This document shows positions 42,417-49,629 of a DNA stretch of 59,659 nt, piece after piece. The number at the start of each line of letters is the position of its first letter. Position 1 is the first letter of the stretch. The notes beneath the pieces are model-generated. The model saw only the letters and a list, made by a program, of their open reading frames with translations, searched no databases and had not been told where the DNA came from. The DNA is from Promicromonospora soli (lineage in GTDB: Bacteria > Actinomycetota > Actinomycetes > Actinomycetales > Cellulomonadaceae). The position numbers and the translations under genes were made by a program. The stretch spans positions 1 to 59,659 of the forward strand of contig NZ_BNAS01000012.1 in the NCBI RefSeq assembly GCF_014653785.1. Direction: 5' to 3'.

Positions 42417-43046
42417 TCAGGACGTCGACCACCGCTGGTTGTCCCCGGCGTGGCAGCTGAACATGATCGCGGGTGTCCCGTTCTCGGTGCCCCCGCCCGA
42501 GACGTCGAGGCACAGTCCGGTGGCGACGTTGCGCACGGTGCCGTCGGCCTGCGGGCTCCACTGCTGGTTCCCGGCGCCGTGGCACGTCCAGATGGTCGCG
42601 GGACCGCCGGGCTGTCCGCCGCCCGGGTCGTCCAGGCACATGGTCCCCAGGGTGCGCAGCTCCCCTGAGGCCGACGCGGTCCACTGCTGGCCCGCGGCCC
42701 CGGTGCAGTCGTAGATCTGCAGGGCGGTGCCGTCCGCGGCGGCCCCGCCGGGCACGTCGAGGCATCGGCCGGACGCGACGGCCCGCAGCGCGACGATCGT
42801 CGGCGCAGCGGGCGGAGGGCTCGGCGTGGGCGACGGTTCCGGGCTCGCGGGGGCGCTCACCTGGCTCGGCTCGGGTGTGCTCGCGGTCTCGGCCGCGCTT
42901 GGCCCGGGCCCGCCCTGCGGGTCGGACAGGTCGCGCGTCAGCACCCACACGGTGCCGACCACGGCGGAGAGCGACAGCACGACGGCGAGCACCCATGCGA
43001 CTGTGCCGAGGGGCGAGCGCCGACGCGGCGTGACTTGGTCGTACAC
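42417..43046 (-). CDS. Membrane-anchored ricin-type lectin (CBM13) protein
   Basis: A 209-residue protein with a short cytoplasmic tail (QVTPRRRSPLG), one membrane helix (about 15-37), a Pro/Ser-rich linker (SPEPSPTPSPPPAAP) and a C-terminal beta-trefoil with three repeats carrying QQW, QQW and QRW motifs, preceded by Cys pairs typical of ricin B domains. It probably displays a carbohydrate-binding domain on the outer face of the membrane. No catalytic part is present. Its 3' end is two bases from the convergent UPF0303 gene, and it lies downstream of the gas-vesicle operon on the same strand, 70 bp after gvpL. Confidence 0.8.
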   Translation of the reverse strand: MYDQVTPRRRSPLGTVAWVLAVVLSLSAVVGTVWVLTRDLSDPQGGPGPSAAETASTPEPSQVSAPASPEPSPTPSPPPAAPTIVALRAVASGRCLDVPGGAAADGTALQIYDCTGAAGQQWTASASGELRTLGTMCLDDPGGGQPGGPATIWTCHGAGNQQWSPQADGTVRNVATGLCLDVSGGGTENGTPAIMFSCHAGDNQRWSTS

Positions 43047-43116: not shown

Positions 43117-43938
43117 TCACGGCCGGAGATCCGCCGGCGGGCGGGCAGCGGCCTGCCCGGGCCCCGGCGTCTCCGCGAAGGAGTACGTGGGCCACGGTCC
43201 CGAGTACCGGATGCGCGCCGCGGGCTGCTCGTCGGTGATCGCCGCGAGCTCGCGGCCGACCGCTTCCATGTCGTCCCGCGGTACGAGCAGCGAGACGCTG
43301 AGCACGGCGACGACGCCGGGCTCGAAGCGAGCGCTGCGGTTCTCCGCGAGGTCCTCGGACACCTTCGCGAGGCGGCGGCGGTACTCCTGGTACAGATCGT
43401 CGGCGAGCGCGTCGGTCAGGTCGCGCTCGAGCCGCGCCAGCCGCTTGCGCAGGAGCCGCTGCACGCCCGCGGGGCGTCCGGCGAGCTCGGCGCGCACGGC
43501 GTCGGCCCGCGGGTCGTGCCTCCCCACCTCCTCCTGGTCGAGCCCGATCTCGACCCGGAGCTCGACACGGCCGTCCAGGCGGTCCAGCCGGGCCAGGAGC
43601 ACCTCGGCGTTCGCCGTCAGCCAGGTCTCGAGCCGATGCCGCGCCGACTGCTCCTCGCCGCCGGCGACGATGACGTTGAAGGTCATCGGCAGCACGGTGA
43701 ACCCGGCCTCCCAGACCCGGTCGACGACCTCGCTGTGCTCCACGACCCAGCGCCGGACGTCGTCGTCGGGGCCCGTGTACGGGCCCCCGGCGTGGTGGTG
43801 GACGACGGCGGAGAGCCCCTCGCCGACCGTGACGACGACGAGCGGTGCGTCGTCGATGCCGGTGCCCGCGTCACCCGGCACGTCACCCGGCAGAGCGCGG
43901 GCGACGGCGTAGACGTACAGGCCCTCCGCGTCCGTCAC
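43117..43938 (-). CDS. gvpL: Gas vesicle protein GvpL/GvpF family
   Basis: A 273-residue GvpL/F protein. It begins with the family motif LYVYAVAR and carries the conserved VLPMTFNVIV region (equivalent to the VLPVRFGT segment of GvpF) and a C-terminal DDMEAVGRELAAI and GPWPTYSFA (GPWPPYSF motif). GvpF/L proteins bind GvpA and assist vesicle assembly, and may be minor shell parts. The GTG at 43938 overlaps the gvpK stop (GTGA), marking the true start within a longer open frame. It is the last gene of the gvp operon. Confidence 0.9.
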   Translation of the reverse strand: MTDAEGLYVYAVARALPGDVPGDAGTGIDDAPLVVVTVGEGLSAVVHHHAGGPYTGPDDDVRRWVVEHSEVVDRVWEAGFTVLPMTFNVIVAGGEEQSARHRLETWLTANAEVLLARLDRLDGRVELRVEIGLDQEEVGRHDPRADAVRAELAGRPAGVQRLLRKRLARLERDLTDALADDLYQEYRRRLAKVSEDLAENRSARFEPGVVAVLSVSLLVPRDDMEAVGRELAAITDEQPAARIRYSGPWPTYSFAETPGPGQAAARPPADLRP

Positions 43939-44258
43939 GCGCCCTCCCCGGCGGTCCCGTCGGCCCAGCGGGCCGGGTTGACGAGCCTGTCGACGACGTC
44001 GTTCACCACGTCGTCGAGGCCGCGCCGCAGGTCGGCGACGGAGGTCGTCAGCCCGTGGTCGGCCTTGATGGACTCGAGCGCTTCGTCCAGGTCGAGCAGT
44101 GCCTGGCCGAGGCGCTCCTGCTCCTCCTCCGTGAGCTCGCCGCCCTCGAGGCGGCGCACCGCCTGGCTCTCGAGCGCCTCCTGGATGATCTCGACCAGCG
44201 TCACGACGAGCGTGAGGAGGCCGTTCTTGAGGCTGGTCTCGTCGACTCTGAGCGTCAC
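43935..44258 (-). CDS. gvpK: Gas vesicle protein GvpK
   Basis: A 107-residue protein with the GvpK motif LKNGLLTLVVTLVEIIQEALESQAVRR in two parts: LKNGLLTLVVTLVEI, then EALESQAVRRLEGG. The acidic segment GQALLDLDEALESIKADHGL follows. GvpK is required for vesicle formation in other bacteria, but its mechanism is not settled. The GTG at 44258 is chosen because GGAGGAG lies four bases before it and it overlaps the upstream stop (GTGA). The longer open frame to 44312 is therefore not used. Confidence 0.9.
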   Translation of the reverse strand: MTLRVDETSLKNGLLTLVVTLVEIIQEALESQAVRRLEGGELTEEEQERLGQALLDLDEALESIKADHGLTTSVADLRRGLDDVVNDVVDRLVNPARWADGTAGEGA

Positions 44259-45235
44259 GTCGCTCCTCCTCCCGTGGCGGCGCCCGCGACGTCGCGGAGC
44301 GACGCCGCCCACAGAGCCGTGTCCCTGGTGGCGAGCCGGACGGGCCGTGTCCCGCCCCTGACAACGAGCATCTCGTCGCCCACCGGTGTCCGGCCTCGGA
44401 CGAGCTCGACCGAGCGGATGTCGCCCGGCCTCAGGCGGACGGCGGGCCTGGCATCACGGACACCCTTCCACGTCAGGCCCTCGACCCAGTCGAGCGTTCC
44501 TGTGCCGCCCCGCCAGGCCGAGCCGCCGGCGAGATCCTCGAGGTACCAGACCGCTCCCTGGAGCGCCGGGCCGCCCGAGCCGCTCTCGATCGCTTTGCTC
44601 GTGGCGGCCACATTCTGGCGCAGCAGCGACGCGAGGCCCTCGGGCGACGCCGCCGAGACCAGCGTGGTGCCCGCGGGTGTGGTCACGGCGAGGCGGCTGC
44701 GCTCCTCGCCACCCGCGCTCCGCTCGCTCCGCAGCTCGACGCCGGTGATCTCCTCGAGGTACGCCTGCCAGAGCAGCTCGCGCGGTTCCGCGCGCCACAC
44801 CATGAGCCGCCGCGTGGTGAGGTAGACCGTACCGAGCCGCCACGCGTCGTACGGCTCGTCCTGGCGATGGCCGCCCGCCATGCGGGTGACGACGTCCTCG
44901 TCGGCGTGCAGCGGTACGCGACGCGCGAGAGAGGTGCGGGCCCACGCCCGGGTCTGCTCGTCCCACTGCTGCATCATCCCGTGCTCGAGCATCGTGTCGA
45001 TGCCGGCGATCGCGGCCCGGAGGCTGACGCCGATCAAGGGAATGTCCGCCACGGTGACGATCAGGTCGAGGTCGAGGTAGACGCCCTTGTCGAGCAGCAC
45101 GTCGAGCAGGTCGGGGAGTGTCGCCCGAAGGTCGCGCGTCGGCTCCATGGCCGACGACCGGTCGCGGTCGTGCACCAGCTCCTGCCCGCGCTCCTGTCCG
45201 TGCGACGGTGCCGTGGTCACCCGGCTCTCAGCCAT
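44255..45235 (-). CDS. GvpJ/GvpS-type protein fused to a GRAM/PH-like domain
   Basis: A 326-residue protein. Residues about 38-90 form a GvpA/J/S-type core (LLDVLLDKGVYLDLDLIVTV, IPLIGVSLRAAIAGID). The remaining ~230 residues resemble GRAM or bacterial PH domains: HADEDVVTRMAGG, GTVYLTTRRLMVWR, LEEITGVELR, and a second similar unit (RPGDIRSVELVRG, then VRLATRDTALW). Typical GvpJ/S proteins are much shorter. A PH-like domain would give it a membrane- or partner-binding role. It starts eight bases inside the zinc-ribbon gvpJ gene and overlaps gvpK, so it is coupled to both. The domain call is from pattern recognition only. Confidence 0.7.
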   Translation of the reverse strand: MAESRVTTAPSHGQERGQELVHDRDRSSAMEPTRDLRATLPDLLDVLLDKGVYLDLDLIVTVADIPLIGVSLRAAIAGIDTMLEHGMMQQWDEQTRAWARTSLARRVPLHADEDVVTRMAGGHRQDEPYDAWRLGTVYLTTRRLMVWRAEPRELLWQAYLEEITGVELRSERSAGGEERSRLAVTTPAGTTLVSAASPEGLASLLRQNVAATSKAIESGSGGPALQGAVWYLEDLAGGSAWRGGTGTLDWVEGLTWKGVRDARPAVRLRPGDIRSVELVRGRTPVGDEMLVVRGGTRPVRLATRDTALWAASLRDVAGAATGGGAT

Positions 45236-45677
45236 CGTTGCGACCGCGCTCCTCTTCCTCTTGCTCGTCCGCTTCCTGTTCCTCGGCCGGCTCGAGGGCG
45301 CGGGCCTGGCCCTCGCTCAGCGCTCGGGCGCTCTGCCACCCGCACCACGGGCAGTACTCGTCGAGCAGCTGTGCCGTCGGCGACGTCTTGCCGCAGCTCG
45401 GGCAGGTCTCCTTGGCCTCCAGCGCCTCCCGCCATGCCACGGTGTCCGTGTTCGCTCCGCCCGGGAACTCCAGGCCGTAGCGCGCGGCGGTCTCGAAGGA
45501 GGCCAGCGCGGCGCGGATGCGGATGCCCAGCAGCTCGACACCGCCGACCGAGACCATGATGTCGGCGTTGAGCACCAGTCCCTTGTCGAGCAGCGTCTCG
45601 ATGACATGCGCGAGGGTGCCTTCTCGTTCGCGCTGAGGCTCCATGGCACTGCGCCCGCTGCCGCCGACCACGGTCAT
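45228..45677 (-). CDS. gvpJ: GvpJ-like protein with C-terminal zinc ribbon
   Basis: A 149-residue protein with a GvpA/J core (residues about 20-75: VIETLLDKGLVLNADIMVSV, VELLGIRIRAALASFETA), then a CPSC...CPWC zinc-ribbon-like segment (about 93-115) and a very acidic tail (EEQEADEQEEEERG). Zinc ribbons are not part of the usual GvpA/GvpJ fold, so this is an added module that may bind metal or a partner protein. The ATG at 45677 follows AGGGAG. An ATG at 45644 is the other option. Confidence 0.8.
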   Translation of the reverse strand: MTVVGGSGRSAMEPQREREGTLAHVIETLLDKGLVLNADIMVSVGGVELLGIRIRAALASFETAARYGLEFPGGANTDTVAWREALEAKETCPSCGKTSPTAQLLDEYCPWCGWQSARALSEGQARALEPAEEQEADEQEEEERGRNDG

Positions 45678-45709
45678 GCCGCTCCCTCTCCATCGTGGCG
45701 CCGCACGCC

Positions 45710-46192
45710 TCAGGCCTCGACCCGCCCGCGGACATAGCGCCGTCCGCGGCTGTAGCCGAGAAGCTCACCCTCGTCGCTCAGCCGGACCTCGCACTCGGCG
45801 AGGATGTCGGAGGTGCTCGGGATGTGCGCGTCCTCCAAGACCTCGATCGTGACCACCCACGACTCGTCCTCCTGCCGCACCCCGACGACGCCTTCCACCT
45901 GGTGGGAGATCAGAGCGGTGATCTCGTCGAGGGCCCTGCGCACCGCCCCTCGGGCGTCGAGCCTGCCCGCCCTCGGGCGGCTCCGCTTCTCGCCGTCGTC
46001 GTGCGGGGGCCGGCTCTCGCGGCTCTCGGACGGCGTCGCGTGCTCGCGATTCTCGGGCGTCGCGGACGGCTCGCGGCTCTCGGACGTCGTGGACCGCTTT
46101 CGGCTCTCGGACTGCGTGCCGCTCGCGCTCGCCGGGCGCCGTCGGCGAGGGGATCGTGCGGGGTCCGGCCGGTGTTCGCGTTCCTCGCTCAT
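45710..46192 (-). CDS. gvpO: Gas vesicle protein GvpO
   Basis: A 160-residue protein. The N-terminal ~75 residues are a basic/Ser/Glu-rich low-complexity tail with iterated SESRE/PENRE units; the C-terminal GvpO domain includes ALISHQVEGVVGVR, WVVTIEVLEDAHIPSTSDILA and GYSRGRRYVRG. GvpO is an essential accessory or regulatory factor in haloarchaea and actinobacteria. The ATG at 46192 overlaps the gvpG stop. The DNA for the tail is itself repetitive (CGGCTCTCGGA-like units near 46010-46100). Confidence 0.87.
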   Translation of the reverse strand: MSEEREHRPDPARSPRRRRPASASGTQSESRKRSTTSESREPSATPENREHATPSESRESRPPHDDGEKRSRPRAGRLDARGAVRRALDEITALISHQVEGVVGVRQEDESWVVTIEVLEDAHIPSTSDILAECEVRLSDEGELLGYSRGRRYVRGRVEA

Positions 46193-46440
46193 GGTCCTCC
46201 TTGCCGCTTCCGGCGTCTGCCCTCGACCAGCCTGGCCACCAGCGCCTGCTCCAGCGCGTCGGCCTCGGTGTCGTCGATCTCTCCGCGTTCCCGGGCCTGG
46301 GCGACCTCTTCGAGCTGCCGACGAATCGCGCTCGGGTCGTAGTACTCGCGCTCGGCCTCCTGGAGCACCTGGTCGGCGATCCACGCGACGCCACGTACCG
46401 GTGCCAGGGGCAGCCCGAACAGCGCGCCCAAGAGGCCCAC
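46189..46440 (-). CDS. gvpG: Gas vesicle protein GvpG
   Basis: An 83-residue protein with the GvpG pattern: hydrophobic start MGLLGALFGLPLAPVRGV and WIADQVLQEAE, followed by a charged helix (IRRQLEEVAQARERGEIDDTE) with predicted coiled-coil character. GvpG is a small assembly accessory that works with GvpF/L. It starts three bases after gvpF and overlaps gvpO by four bases. Confidence 0.9.
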   Translation of the reverse strand: MGLLGALFGLPLAPVRGVAWIADQVLQEAEREYYDPSAIRRQLEEVAQARERGEIDDTEADALEQALVARLVEGRRRKRQGGP

Positions 46441-46443
46441 CGA

Positions 46444-47223
46444 TCACACCTCCTCGGCGAAGTCGTACGGGGCCTGCGGCCCGACGAGGCGCAGGGCGAT
46501 GCGCGGGAAGATCCCGGCCGCGACGTCCTCGAGCCCGTCCTCGAGTCGTCGCACCGCATCTCGGCGCACCAGGAGCGCGGCGTCCAGCACGGTGTCGACC
46601 TGCCCGACCTCACGGTGCCGGACCTCCACGGCGAGCGGCGCGAGACGGCGCGCGAGGAAGTCGGCGTCCGCCGCCCGTTTCCGCTCGAATCCGGCGACGA
46701 CCAGTTCGCCCAGCCGGACTCGCTCGCCGTACGTCGCCGCCTCGGGCTGTCCGCGCGTGAGATCGCGGAGCCGACGGATCTCCGGCTCCTCGTCCACCAG
46801 CTCCGCGATAACCGCGTCCTCGTCGTAGCGCGCCGTCAGGCTGAGCTGAACCACTCCCGCGAGCTCGCGGAGCCGGTCCGAGTACGCCTCCAGGCGCGGC
46901 ACGGGAAGCCCGGAGGCCAGCGCATCGACGTCGGGGGCGGTCGTGCCGAACTGCACGGGGAGCACGGAGCAGCCCGACAGAGCCACCGCGTCGAGTACTG
47001 CGCCGTGCGCGCGGACCTCGTCCGGCAGACCGATCAGCTCCATGTCGGCGACGTCCGAGACGAGCGCGGTGACCGGCCCGAGGCTCACGGTGCGTACCGC
47101 CCCGCCGCTGACACCGGTCAGGCCGTCCGGCACCCGCGCGTCGGGCATCACCAGGCCGTAGAGGTACAGGCCGGGCTCGACAGGCGCCTCGACCTGCTCG
47201 GGCGTGCTCGCGCTCGCGCTCAC
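46444..47223 (-). CDS. gvpF: Gas vesicle protein GvpF
   Basis: A 259-residue GvpF/L protein with [12 protein letters not shown] at the start, [13 protein letters not shown] (the conserved VLPxxFGT segment), a helical middle, and the C-terminal [15 protein letters not shown] (GPxxPYxF). It is clearly distinct from gvpL at the other end of the operon, so the locus has two F/L paralogues as in Streptomyces. The ATG overlaps the gvpA stop (ATGA), ensuring coupled synthesis with the main shell protein. Confidence 0.9.
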
Positions 47224-47738
47224 GACTGTTCCTTGCGGACCGGCCGACGCCGGGGCCTCTCCTGCGGCTTCCTCTGTCTCGGCTGCCGCACTTCCTCGGG
47301 CTCCTCCGACTCCTCGGGCTCTTCAGGCTCCTCGGGCTCCTCGGGTCGTTCGCGCTCCTTGTCGTCGGCCTTGCTCTTGCTCCCGCGCTCCTTGTCGTCC
47401 TCGCCGAAGATCGCCTCCTTCGCGCTCTGCAGCACACCCTTGGCCTTGCCCTTGCTACCGGACTTGGCCATGTCCTCGGTGAGCTCCGGCAGGGTGCTCC
47501 CTCCGGTCTTTTCCAGGTCGAGACGGTTGGTCGCCTCCGCGAACCGCAGGTACGTGTCGACACTGGCGATCACGATGCGGGCGTCGATGGTGATCAGCTC
47601 GATCCCGACCACGGATATGCGGACGAACGCATCGATGACGAGGCCCTTGTCGAGGATGATGTTGATCACGTCGATCAAGGACGAGGTCGACGGACGGTCG
47701 ACGTACCCGCGGCTGCGCGTAGTGCTCACTTCGCTCAT
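47220..47738 (-). CDS. gvpA: Gas vesicle shell protein GvpA with long charged tail
   Basis: A 172-residue protein. Residues about 18-77 are a very well conserved GvpA core ([40 protein letters not shown]), which forms the amphipathic ribs of the vesicle wall. The last ~90 residues are an added charged, Pro/Glu-rich then Arg-rich tail ([23 protein letters not shown]). Bacterial GvpA is often near 70 residues, so the tail is notable. This appears to be the only bona fide GvpA; the two GvpJ-type cores downstream are more diverged. Confidence 0.9.
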
Positions 47739-47779
47739 GGTGTCTCCTCCCTACCGGTCCGGTGGCTTGGTCGTCGCGG

Positions 47780-48799
47780 TCAGCGGGTTCGGCTCGGAGC
47801 CTCCTCCGGCTCTTCCTCGTACTCCTCCTCTTCTTCCTCCTCCTCGTACTCGTCCTCGGGCTCTTCGTCCCCGGCCTCTTCCTCGGGCTCCTCCTCTTCA
47901 GGCTCCTCTTCCTCGGACGCCTCGTCCTCGTACTCGCCTTCGCCCTCCGGCTCCTCGAATTCCTCCTCGAGGACCTGGTCGTGCGAGCGCACGATCTCCT
48001 CGTCGTCGATCTCCGCCCAGTAGCCCTCGACGTTGTCGGGGTTGAGCACGGCGTCGGTCATGACGTATCGGACGAACAGCTTCAGCTCCAGCCGGAGCCG
48101 TCGGTTCAGGGCCTTCCAGACGTTGCCCGTCTTCTCCATGAAGCCCTTGGGGTGGTACTCGACCACCAGGACGATGCGGGTCAGCTCGTCGTCCAGCGAG
48201 TGGAAGGTGACGGTGCCACTGAGGTGCCCCTTGGCGCCGGTCGACCTCCACACGATGCGCTTGCCAGGGTCCTGGTGCGTGATGGTGGTCTGCCACTGGC
48301 GGCTCGACCAGAACACCTGCCCCTTGAACTCGACCTTGCCCTCGTCCCGGTTGAGCTCGGCGTGCTCGACCTTCTTCATGAAGTCGGGCCAGCGGTCGTA
48401 CTGCGTCCAGGCGTCGTAGACGATGTCGATCGGGGCGCCCACGTCGATGGCTTCGACGATGTTGTTGAACTTGAACGCCTTTCCTTTACCTCCTCCGCCG
48501 CCGAACAAGCCCTTGACCGTTTCCATGACCTTGGTCCCGGCGGCCTTGAGACCTGCCGTGATCGGGGAGCCGCCCTCCGCGAGCTCCTCGGCGCCTGTGG
48601 CGGCGGCCTTGACGTCCGGGCTGGACGTTCCCTCGGCGTAGTCGGTCAGCCGCTGCGTGACGCCACCGACCTTGTCGGTCACCTTGTTCACCGCCATGCC
48701 GCCGACGGCCTTCGCCAACCCGCCCACCGAGCTCTTGAGCGTGTCCACGGCAAGGCCTTTCAGGCCGGGTGCGCTCGGCGTAGGAGCCTGTGCGTTCAT
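47780..48799 (-). CDS. SRPBCC (polyketide cyclase/START-like) protein of the gvp operon with acidic tail
   Basis: A 339-residue protein. Residues 1-105 are a Gly/Ala/Lys-rich helical region (DTLKSSVGGLAKAVGG); residues about 108-250 are an SRPBCC/cyclase-like fold (APIDIVYDAWTQYDRWPDFM, RIVWRSTGAKGHLSGTVTFH, MEKTGNVWKALNRRL). The last ~65 residues are nearly all Glu and Asp. Comparable SRPBCC proteins occur in Streptomyces gvp loci, so the association is conserved, but the role is not established. SRPBCC folds bind hydrophobic ligands; chaperoning of the hydrophobic GvpA is one idea. Confidence 0.82.
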   Translation of the reverse strand: MNAQAPTPSAPGLKGLAVDTLKSSVGGLAKAVGGMAVNKVTDKVGGVTQRLTDYAEGTSSPDVKAAATGAEELAEGGSPITAGLKAAGTKVMETVKGLFGGGGGKGKAFKFNNIVEAIDVGAPIDIVYDAWTQYDRWPDFMKKVEHAELNRDEGKVEFKGQVFWSSRQWQTTITHQDPGKRIVWRSTGAKGHLSGTVTFHSLDDELTRIVLVVEYHPKGFMEKTGNVWKALNRRLRLELKLFVRYVMTDAVLNPDNVEGYWAEIDDEEIVRSHDQVLEEEFEEPEGEGEYEDEASEEEEPEEEEPEEEAGDEEPEDEYEEEEEEEEYEEEPEEAPSRTR

Positions 48800-48825
48800 G
48801 ACTCTCTCCTCCTCGCGATTCCCGG

Positions 48826-49488
48826 TCAGCTCGCCGAGCGGGAGTCGGAGGGCTTCCGCGCGCGTGGCTTGCTGGAACGCGTGGCGGCAGAGCCGCGCGA
48901 CGACGAGGCGCGCTGCGCCGAGCTCCGCGTGGACCTGGTGGGCTTCTCGTCTCCCTCGGCCGCCGCCTCCTTCTTCGGCTGCGGCTTCCTGCTACGGGGC
49001 GCCGGCTTGCGCTCCGCCTTGGCGGGCTTCGTGGTCTCCTCCTCCGCGGGCTCCGTGGTCTCGTCCTCGGCGGGCTCCTCCTCGGGCTCCTCTTCCGTGG
49101 TCTCCTCCTCCTCGGGCTCTTCCGGCTCTTCGGCCTCGTCCTTGGGGAGCACGTCAACGGGCGCGGCCGACCGGAGGCGCTCGGTCTGGGACTCGAGCGT
49201 CGAGTTGATCGAGGAGATGCCCTTGCCCACAGCGGCGAGCGCGGCAGTCTTGCCGGCGTCCACCAGCTTGCTCGTCACCTCGTCCGTGAGCCGCTTGATC
49301 TCGGGCGAGGACAGGACGGAGTCCTTCACGTTGCCGATCCCGCCGAGGAGAGCGTCCCGCGAGGACTCGTCCCGCAGCTTGTTGCCCGCGACCGCCCCGG
49401 CGATCGTCAGCGCAAGCTTCATCTTCTTGGTCCGCCCTAGCAGGTAACCTACGAGCACGAACACCGCAAGCTTGATCTTGTCGTCCAT
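48826..49488 (-). CDS. gvp-operon protein with hydrophobic N terminus, acidic and basic tails
   Basis: A 220-residue protein starting at ATG 49488 (MDDKIKLAVFVLVGYLLGRT), preceded by GGAGG seven bases upstream. An N-terminal hydrophobic segment is followed by a helical region (about 40-105; NSTLESQTERLRSA), then a Glu/Thr tract (EEPEEEETTEEEPEEEP) and a Lys/Arg/Ser-rich end. The charge reversal along the tail is striking. Proteins of this kind open several actinobacterial gvp operons (cf. GvpT/Y-like genes), without known function. It is the first gene of the operon; the 141 bp upstream hold no promoter I can identify with confidence. Confidence 0.72.
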   Translation of the reverse strand: MDDKIKLAVFVLVGYLLGRTKKMKLALTIAGAVAGNKLRDESSRDALLGGIGNVKDSVLSSPEIKRLTDEVTSKLVDAGKTAALAAVGKGISSINSTLESQTERLRSAAPVDVLPKDEAEEPEEPEEEETTEEEPEEEPAEDETTEPAEEETTKPAKAERKPAPRSRKPQPKKEAAAEGDEKPTRSTRSSAQRASSSRGSAATRSSKPRARKPSDSRSAS

Positions 49489-49629
49489 CGAGACCTCCAC
49501 TGCTGGTTGGTAGTCCATCCCTAGCGTCGCTGCTGGTCCCCACCCCCCAGTTCAGAGTTGCACGCGTCCTGCTGGCTCGCACGGCGGTGAGAAGAGCCTG
49601 TGCCGGCGCACCGGGTGCAGGATCGTGGG

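What the first reader, a model, noticed from the sequence alone, without database searches (positions are those of the whole stretch)
44255..45235. GvpJ/S core fused to GRAM/PH-like domains
A vesicle-wall core is followed by ~230 residues with the pattern of GRAM or bacterial PH domains, probably two units. This could attach the nascent vesicle to membrane lipid or to a protein scaffold, an assembly step not described for gas vesicles.
Basis: inference. Interest (0 to 1): 0.7.

Follow-up and report, generated by a model that had tools for sequence, protein, structure and literature searches.

The report
Gas-vesicle seed protein with PH tail
A minor gas-vesicle protein thought to help start new vesicles carries, in some actinobacteria, one or two extra domains predicted to fold like the PH/GRAM docking modules of animal signalling proteins, which suggests how vesicle seeds might be held together or placed in the cell.

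Summary
ORF 45235-44255 (-), 326 aa, sits in a gvp cluster. Residues 39-77 match Pfam Gas_vesicle (6e-11); the core is GvpM/GvpS type (best NCBIfam match GvpM, 1e-25), not GvpJ, which is the gene before it. The tail (about 105-322) is conserved and constrained. AlphaFold2 gives two successive seven-strand-plus-helix domains, mostly pLDDT 90-97; Foldseek matches are dominated by PH-fold proteins. Sequence support is weak: no PH family in the window protein itself, sub-threshold Vps36/GRAM hits in relatives.

All 36 loci found in a species-wide pattern scan fuse this tail to a GvpM/S core: eight in fuller clusters, 28 with only J-S-K-L in the fetched flanks. In four Streptomyces-type genomes that J-S-K-L locus holds the only GvpM/S and GvpK, with O-A-F-G elsewhere. 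In Bacillus, S, K and J are the proposed seeding factors and act with L (PMC11445434). Best reading: the tail is a protein-docking platform of the seed. A lipid anchor is possible but little supported. Nothing is shown experimentally.

The parts
44255..45235 (-). GvpM/GvpS-type gene with C-terminal tandem PH-fold tail, 326 aa
   Evidence: ORF; PF00741 6.3e-11; NCBIfam GvpM 1.3e-25
44948..45148 (-). GvpM-type core, residues 30-96
   Evidence: NF046091 match over model positions 1-67
44582..44893 (-). PH unit 1, residues 115-218
   Evidence: AlphaFold2 strands 115-195 and helix 198-218; alone pLDDT 91.9, pTM 0.84; Foldseek matches to PH domains
44276..44569 (-). PH unit 2, residues 223-320; absent from two lineages
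   Evidence: AlphaFold2 strands 223-302 and helix 306-320; tree; not folded alone
45228..45677 (-). gvpJ with a C-terminal CPxC-x13-CPWC motif; overlaps the GvpM/S gene by 8 nt
   Evidence: NCBIfam GvpJ 1.8e-29; motif in 37 of 37 relatives' loci, overlap
43935..44258 (-). gvpK; its likely GTG start overlaps the GvpM/S stop by 4 nt (GTGA)
   Evidence: PF05121 7e-22; overlap
43117..43938 (-). gvpL
   Evidence: PF06386 2.4e-46; NCBIfam GvpL 4.8e-34
45710..46204 (-). gvpO (start not determined)
   Evidence: PF05800 9.1e-26
46189..46440 (-). gvpG-like gene
   Evidence: name from position and recall; no gvpG model hit in the NCBIfam scan, not scanned with Pfam; tblastn kin in the same place in other clusters
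46444..47223 (-). gvpF
   Evidence: PF06386 2.9e-51
47220..47738 (-). gvpA, the shell protein of the cluster
   Evidence: PF00741 2.6e-13; PRK09368 1.3e-44, over its cut-off

Best explanation
The gene encodes the GvpM/GvpS-type minor shell homologue of this cluster, extended by two successive PH-fold domains. Shown here by sequence and prediction: the core, the fusion, its conservation, the tandem PH fold, the tight linkage with gvpJ, gvpK and gvpL. Inferred: as proposed for Bacillus and Halobacterium, the core joins the seed or conical tip of a new vesicle together with GvpJ; the PH tail stays in the cytosol as a docking platform for protein partners, most likely GvpL, GvpK or the cysteine-motif tail of GvpJ, so that J, S, K and L form one seeding complex. 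Unit 1, always present in the forms seen, makes the main contact; unit 2 is auxiliary, since two lineages lack it.
For: Core type. Tandem PH fold; profile match between the units; weak sequence hits in relatives to Vps36, GRAM, PH_TFIIH. Constraint. Fusion in 36 of 36 loci. J-S-K-L as the only gvp genes in the flanks of 28 of 36 loci and on one plasmid. Split but complete single-copy sets in four genomes. Gene overlaps J/S and S/K. Literature passages: S, K and J needed for the GvpA2-GvpL contact and proposed for seeding (PMC11445434); GvpM contacts GvpL (PMC9501494); GvpA homologues found in bicones (PMC10903477); tandem PH-like domains of CheF proposed as a protein platform (PMC9126983). Unit 1 without lipid motif and near-neutral.
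Against: No interaction or localisation data. The window protein alone hits no PH family; hits in relatives are under the Pfam cut-offs where scores were seen. The model's pTM is 0.50 and the core is low-confidence, so core and tail cannot be placed relative to each other. Halobacterium GvpM has no such tail and its last 20 residues are dispensable (PMC9501494), so a seed can form without it. Unit 2 was lost or gained separately in two lineages. The tail evolves faster than the core. Production of vesicles by these strains was not checked.
Confidence: 0.5

Rival explanations
1. Membrane tether: the PH units bind membrane lipid (actinobacteria have phosphatidylinositol, recalled) and fix the vesicle seed at the membrane.
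For: PH fold with lipid-binding relatives among the fold matches, such as Btk and the MTMR2 complex with a phosphoinositide. Unit-2 loop averages +1.5 and 9 of 35 unit-2 sequences fit a loose arginine motif. An SRPBCC 'lipid transport' fold gene lies in the cluster.
Against: Unit 1, always present, has no canonical motif in 37 of 37; no lysine-first motif in either unit; net charge averages -1.4 and +1.1; the window's unit-2 loop is not basic. Sequence counts only, no surface map.
Confidence: 0.18
2. Passive bulk: the tail is a soluble cap that keeps the hydrophobic core from aggregating or from entering the regular ribs, with no specific partner.
For: The tail is less constrained than the core (dN/dS 0.28 and 0.34 against 0.07); unit number varies; A. 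flos-aquae GvpJ has a quite different extension of unknown function (PMC10903477); Bacillus GvpS tolerates fusions (PMC11445434).
Against: Strong conservation of particular residues in unit 1, e.g. 23 invariant of 114 in 24 sequences, and retention of the same fold at about 45% identity between families.
Confidence: 0.17
3. Adaptor to a cell scaffold or signalling protein outside the Gvp set, as CheF links CheY to the archaellum.
For: CheF (7ovp) is rank 8 among fold matches, and 2 of 37 members match CheF-arch weakly by sequence, best 0.061.
Against: No candidate partner: only J, S, K and L recurred throughout around the detached locus; the next frames reached at most 11 of 28. The resemblance to CheF may be no more than a shared fold, and its PH units are at the N-terminus (PMC9126983).
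Confidence: 0.1
4. The tail is not a PH fold; the prediction and fold matches mislead.
For: No PH family over its cut-off; profile searches of PDB sequences found no PH protein for the whole tail or unit 1 and only TFIIH tfb1 at E 1.2 for unit 2.
Against: High pLDDT for both units, pTM 0.84 for unit 1 alone; query TM-scores of 0.60-0.75 to PH domains in 49 of the 50 listed matches, the other being SsgB at 0.37 (one of the 49, 4tyz, is an unnamed Leishmania protein).
Confidence: 0.04

Closest known systems
Haloarchaeal GvpM / Bacillus GvpS
   Same: Core sequence: 49% identity over 77 residues to pNRC100 GvpM; gene company of J, K, L
   Different: pNRC100 GvpM is 84 aa and ends soon after the core; here one or two PH units follow
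Short GvpS-like frames of other actinobacterial gvp clusters
   Same: GvpA-family core
   Different: The example read ends soon after the core (L020; an example, not a survey)
GvpJ and GvpK of Anabaena/A. flos-aquae
   Same: Minor GvpA homologues with unusual extensions or fusions (PMC10903477, passages)
   Different: There six 21-residue repeats, or fusion of a GvpA-like domain to GvpK; here a folded PH pair
Archaeal CheF
   Same: Two PH-like domains in a protein of a prokaryotic motility system, proposed as protein platform (PMC9126983, passages); fold match rank 8
   Different: CheF has its PH units first and a CheY-binding C-terminal domain, and no GvpA-family core; no CheF family hit in the window protein
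GRAM, Vps36-GLUE, PH domains of eukaryotes
   Same: Predicted fold
   Different: No family cut-off reached; no canonical lipid motif in unit 1

Membership tests
GvpM/GvpS (A-J-M family) | GvpA-family core over the Pfam cut-off | tested here: met
   PF00741 42.7 bits against 25; 37 of 37 members match
GvpM/GvpS (A-J-M family) | Closer to GvpM than to GvpA or GvpJ | tested here: met
   1.3e-25 against 4.9e-12 (GvpJ) and 7.8e-6 (GvpA); 88.9 bits is under the haloarchaeal model's own cut-off of 109
GvpM/GvpS (A-J-M family) | Short protein without further domain | tested here: not met
   326 aa with two extra folded units; hence 'GvpM/S-type core with extension'
GvpM/GvpS (A-J-M family) | Encoded with gvpJ, gvpK, gvpL | tested here: met
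   Window and 36 of 36 loci
GvpM/GvpS (A-J-M family) | Required for vesicle formation | not testable with these tools
   needs a knock-out
PH fold superfamily | Seven strands in two sheets capped by a C-terminal helix | tested here: met
   Seven strands and a helix in each unit by prediction; Foldseek; predicted, not solved
PH fold superfamily | Tryptophan in the C-terminal helix (hallmark recalled) | tested here: inconclusive
   W309 in the unit-2 helix is nearly invariant; the unit-1 helix 198-218 has none
GRAM domain (PF02893) | Score over the Pfam cut-off | tested here: not met
   8 of 37 members hit, best E 0.0036; the score seen is 16.8 bits against 23.6; none in the window protein
Phosphoinositide-binding PH domain | Basic K-x(n)-[KR]-x-R motif between strands 1 and 2 (recalled) | tested here: not met
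   Unit 1: 0 of 37 even with R allowed first. Unit 2: 0 with K first, 9 of 35 with R allowed first
CheF-arch (PF04283) | Family score and C-terminal CheY-binding domain after the PH units | tested here: not met
   2 of 37 members, best E 0.061, not the window protein; the PH units are the C-terminal part here

The most novel reading that the evidence does not exclude
J-S-K-L is a portable gas-vesicle seeding unit that evolves and moves apart from the shell-making genes, and its PH-tailed GvpS is the adaptor that decides where in the cell (membrane, pole or protein scaffold) a vesicle is started.
Probability: 0.25. Interest if true: 0.78.

Novelty: new variant of a known kind. Interest (0 to 1): 0.6.

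Why it matters
Seeding is called the least understood step of gas-vesicle assembly (PMC11445434, passage). A natural GvpS with a folded, deletable handle, encoded in a four-gene J-S-K-L locus that stands apart from the shell genes in some genomes, gives a direct way to ask which proteins make the seed, and a domain that can be expressed alone, solved and used as bait. If the docking reading holds, it also adds a PH-fold adaptor to a second prokaryotic motility organelle beside the archaellum.

Tried and rejected
Rejected: GvpJ identity (GvpJ is the neighbouring gene). Rejected: a chance or out-of-frame tail (conserved in 36 loci, dN/dS under 1). Rejected as chance: Glyco_transf_8 (0.16) and a nanobody (0.016) for the window protein; among relatives also ACT_PSP_2, DEC-1_N, Phage_RpbA and TOBE_2 (1-2 members each) and DUF2065. 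Not supported: membership of a Pfam PH-type family; none reached its cut-off where scores were seen.

Led nowhere: first genome-contig scan with the single protein (nothing confirmed); the VIA-align library was not available; profile searches of PDB sequences gave nothing for the tail, non-PH Crn4 at 0.68 for unit 1, and EEPD1 at 0.45 and TFIIH tfb1 at 1.2 for unit 2; the viral fold library gave two matches at E <= 0.001, neither of clear use; the one 'pleckstrin' paper was unrelated; 'gas vesicle' with 'Promicromonospora' gave no paper. Neighbours of the detached locus: frames over J, S, K and L reached all loci compared; others reached at most 11 of 28 (from five source loci). The GvpN search rings weakly in 12 of 14 control genomes, so its weak hits mean nothing.

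Rows left out: unit profiles used 24 of 37 and 21 of 35 rows, thinned by eye; dN/dS used 19 hand-picked pairs; one search used 8 of 37 proteins; the J-motif check took the GvpJ reading frames of the 36 loci and one plasmid. G780 (47 residues, E 7e-4) is not counted as a relative, nor are the weak long matches of G327, G235, G419. Only 5 or 7 candidates per genome were scored, so those counts are lower bounds. In A5 the relatives start at or near the conserved PT motif; L084's frame runs on past the usual end and was kept.

Full report
WHAT IS THERE. The finding names the minus-strand ORF 45235-44255. It is there, 326 codons from ATG to TGA. It lies in a gas-vesicle cluster read on the minus strand: an uncharacterised gene (49518-48826), an SRPBCC-fold gene (48799-47780), gvpA, gvpF, a gvpG-like gene (named by position and recall), gvpO, gvpJ, the gene in question, gvpK and gvpL. 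gvpJ and this gene overlap by 8 nt, this gene and gvpK by 4 nt. There is no gvpN match over the family cut-off in this genome or in seven others searched.

THE CORE. Residues 39-77 match PF00741 (6.3e-11). Among NCBIfam models the best is GvpM (1.3e-25, 88.9 bits, under that haloarchaeal model's cut-off of 109), ahead of GvpJ (4.9e-12) and GvpA (7.8e-6). pNRC100 GvpM of Halobacterium is 49% identical over 77 residues and is 84 aa long. So this is the GvpM/GvpS of the cluster with something added. In one GvpS-like frame that I read from another actinobacterial cluster the protein ends soon after the core (L020); that is an example, not a survey.

THE TAIL BY SEQUENCE. The window protein alone hits no PH-type family. 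Of 37 proteins (window and 36 relatives), 14 match Vps36_ESCRT-II, 8 GRAM, 2 PH_TFIIH, 2 CheF-arch and 1 DUF4429 at E <= 1, best values 0.0036-0.25; five other families of no evident relation match 1-3 members each. Scores were under the Pfam cut-offs in the 8 proteins whose tables I saw. Vps36-N, GRAM and the TFIIH p62 N-domain are PH folds (recalled). The convergence is suggestive, not proof. Profiles of the two halves of the tail align with each other (probability 91.7, E 7.7e-7).

THE TAIL BY FOLD. AlphaFold2 with the 37-row alignment gives mean pLDDT 79.9 and pTM 0.50. Block means are 39-76 up to residue 100, and 90-97 over 111-320 except the linker 211-230 (70 and 85). Two copies of seven strands plus a helix follow one another, 115-218 and 223-320. 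The low pTM leaves the relative placing of core and tail open. Foldseek lists 50 of 100 PDB matches at E <= 0.001: BBS5, FARP1/2 PH-PH, Dok7 and IRS-1 PH-PTB, CheF, centaurin, Rtt106, GRK2, Btk, and six chains named only by their assembly (polymerase II or replisome); TM-scores are low (query TM 0.19-0.29) because two domains and a floppy core are superposed at once. Unit 1 alone folds at pLDDT 91.9 and pTM 0.84 and matches Btk, GRK2, MTMR2, CARMIL, Lam6, Vps36 and TBC1D23 with query TM-scores of 0.60-0.75; of the 50 listed, SsgB (TM 0.37) is the exception and one, 4tyz, is an unnamed protein. Unit 2 was not folded alone.

WHO HAS IT. Relatives: 3 of 12 other genomes of the genus (one PH unit each), 1 of 24 others of the family (two units), 0 of 22 of the order. 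Class sample: 3 of 394 including the window's own, while 89 of 394 have some match to the query, mostly to the core; G327, G235 and G419 gave long weak matches, two of them with stops inside, that I do not count; 5 candidates per genome were scored, so this is a lower bound. One large genus (the same proteins occur in named Streptomyces loci): 12 of 392 with a convincing tail, 11 with two units and 1 with one, besides one weak 47-residue match. A scan of 84,980 species genomes, limited to one conserved nine-residue pattern, gave 36 loci from Isoptericola, Puerhibacterium, Brachybacterium, Promicromonospora, Actinomadura and Streptomyces. All 36 have the core in front of the tail, and 34 have two units (35 of 37 rows, one row being the window). 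None is a free-standing tail, but the pattern could miss others. A plasmid copy sits in Streptomyces sp. SGAir0924, annotated 'GvpJ'. In a 39-row tree the four one-unit rows fall in two places, and well-supported branches force two changes. By path the window row is nearest to two-unit Isoptericola rows, though the genomes called its own genus carry the one-unit form or none; the fork that joins them is unresolved.

TWO KINDS OF NEIGHBOURHOOD. In 8 of 36 loci (Promicromonosporaceae and Brachybacterium) the gene lies in a cluster with A, F, G, O, J, K and L. In the other 28 (Streptomyces, Actinomadura), and on the plasmid, only J, S, K and L are found in the fetched flanks of up to 6 kb, shorter at some contig ends. 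No other frame recurred in more than 11 of the 28. In four genomes (G326, G483, G643, G810) there are just three GvpA-family genes, two GvpF/L, one GvpK and one GvpO: O, A, F and G lie at one locus with an SRPBCC gene and, in two of the four by this search, a 48826-like gene; J, S, K and L lie at another, 561 kb away on one contig in G326 (the second locus was re-read only for G326). The window's set is thus there, cut in two, and the PH-tailed protein is the only GvpM/S these genomes have. The other nine genomes of the 13 have 5-11 GvpA-family genes, that is, further clusters.

HOW IT MOST LIKELY WORKS. In Bacillus, removing GvpS, K or J abolishes the GvpA2-GvpL contact; S, K and J are proposed for seeding and for the tips (PMC11445434, passages). 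GvpA homologues of this kind are absent from the cylinder and were found in bicones (PMC10903477, passages). Haloarchaeal GvpM contacts GvpL in split-GFP, is needed early, and tolerates loss of its last 20 residues (PMC9501494, passages). The natural J-S-K-L unit found here is the same four. I infer that the PH tail is a docking platform within that set. CheF is a precedent: two PH-like domains, judged unlikely to bind phosphate and proposed as a protein platform at the archaellum (PMC9126983, passages). Lipid binding is less likely: unit 1 lacks the basic motif in 37 of 37, a lysine-first motif is absent from both units, and net charges average -1.4 and +1.1. Against this, the unit-2 loop averages +1.5 and 9 of 35 fit an arginine version. 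These are sequence counts without a surface map.

SELECTION. Median dN/dS in 19 hand-picked pairs: core 0.07, unit 1 0.28, unit 2 0.34 (18 pairs); the highest single value is 0.82 (unit 2, L060/L061). The tail is constrained, but much less than the core, which also fits the passive-bulk rival.

COMPANION FEATURE. GvpJ at the same loci ends in a CPxC-x13-CPWC motif in 37 of 37 (36 loci and the plasmid); pNRC100 GvpJ and the Natronorubrum GvpJ-like protein have no cysteine pair of this kind. Both minor shell homologues of this cluster type thus carry an added C-terminal module.

LIMITS. Literature was searched in an open library only: 'gas vesicle' with 'GRAM domain' 0 papers, with 'PH domain' 0, with 'pleckstrin' 1, unrelated. 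Papers of subscription journals on actinomycete gas vesicles were not seen. I checked no experimental record of vesicles in these strains beyond one search for Promicromonospora, which found none.

Noticed in passing
window 45228-45677 (-): GvpJ carries a C-terminal CPxC-x13-CPWC motif that looks like a zinc ribbon; present in 37 of 37 loci checked that have the PH-tailed GvpS, absent from pNRC100 GvpJ. Zinc-ribbon Pfam hits are weak, 0.02-0.9.
   Followed up: partly
L100, L104 (G326); L101-L103 (G483, G643, G810): The gas-vesicle genes of four Streptomyces-type genomes are split into two distant single-copy loci, O-A-F-G plus SRPBCC, and J-S-K-L.
   Followed up: partly
L098 (NZ_CP027299.1, 198325-200918): The J-S-K-L unit occurs alone on a 377-kb linear Streptomyces plasmid, with the PH-tailed gene annotated as gvpJ and a B12-binding-domain gene upstream.
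   Followed up: no
window 43117-49518: No gvpN in the cluster and none over the family cut-off in the genome, although a review lists gvpN among genes conserved in all clusters (PMC9501494).
   Followed up: partly
window 47780-48799 (-): SRPBCC / polyketide-cyclase 'lipid transport' fold protein with a long acidic C-terminal tail inside the gvp cluster (PF03364 5.4e-16); kin also beside the split A-F-G-O locus.
   Followed up: no
window 48826-49518 (-): Gene with a hydrophobic start and a low-complexity E/P/A/K-rich remainder at the 5' end of the cluster, no convincing family, with kin at that place in other full clusters.
   Followed up: no
L005/L079, L006, L007/L088, L056: One-unit forms lacking PH unit 2 arose in two separate lineages.
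   Followed up: yes
window 42417-43046 (-): Downstream ORF that by eye looks like a membrane-anchored ricin-type (beta-trefoil) carbohydrate-binding domain; not tested.
   Followed up: no
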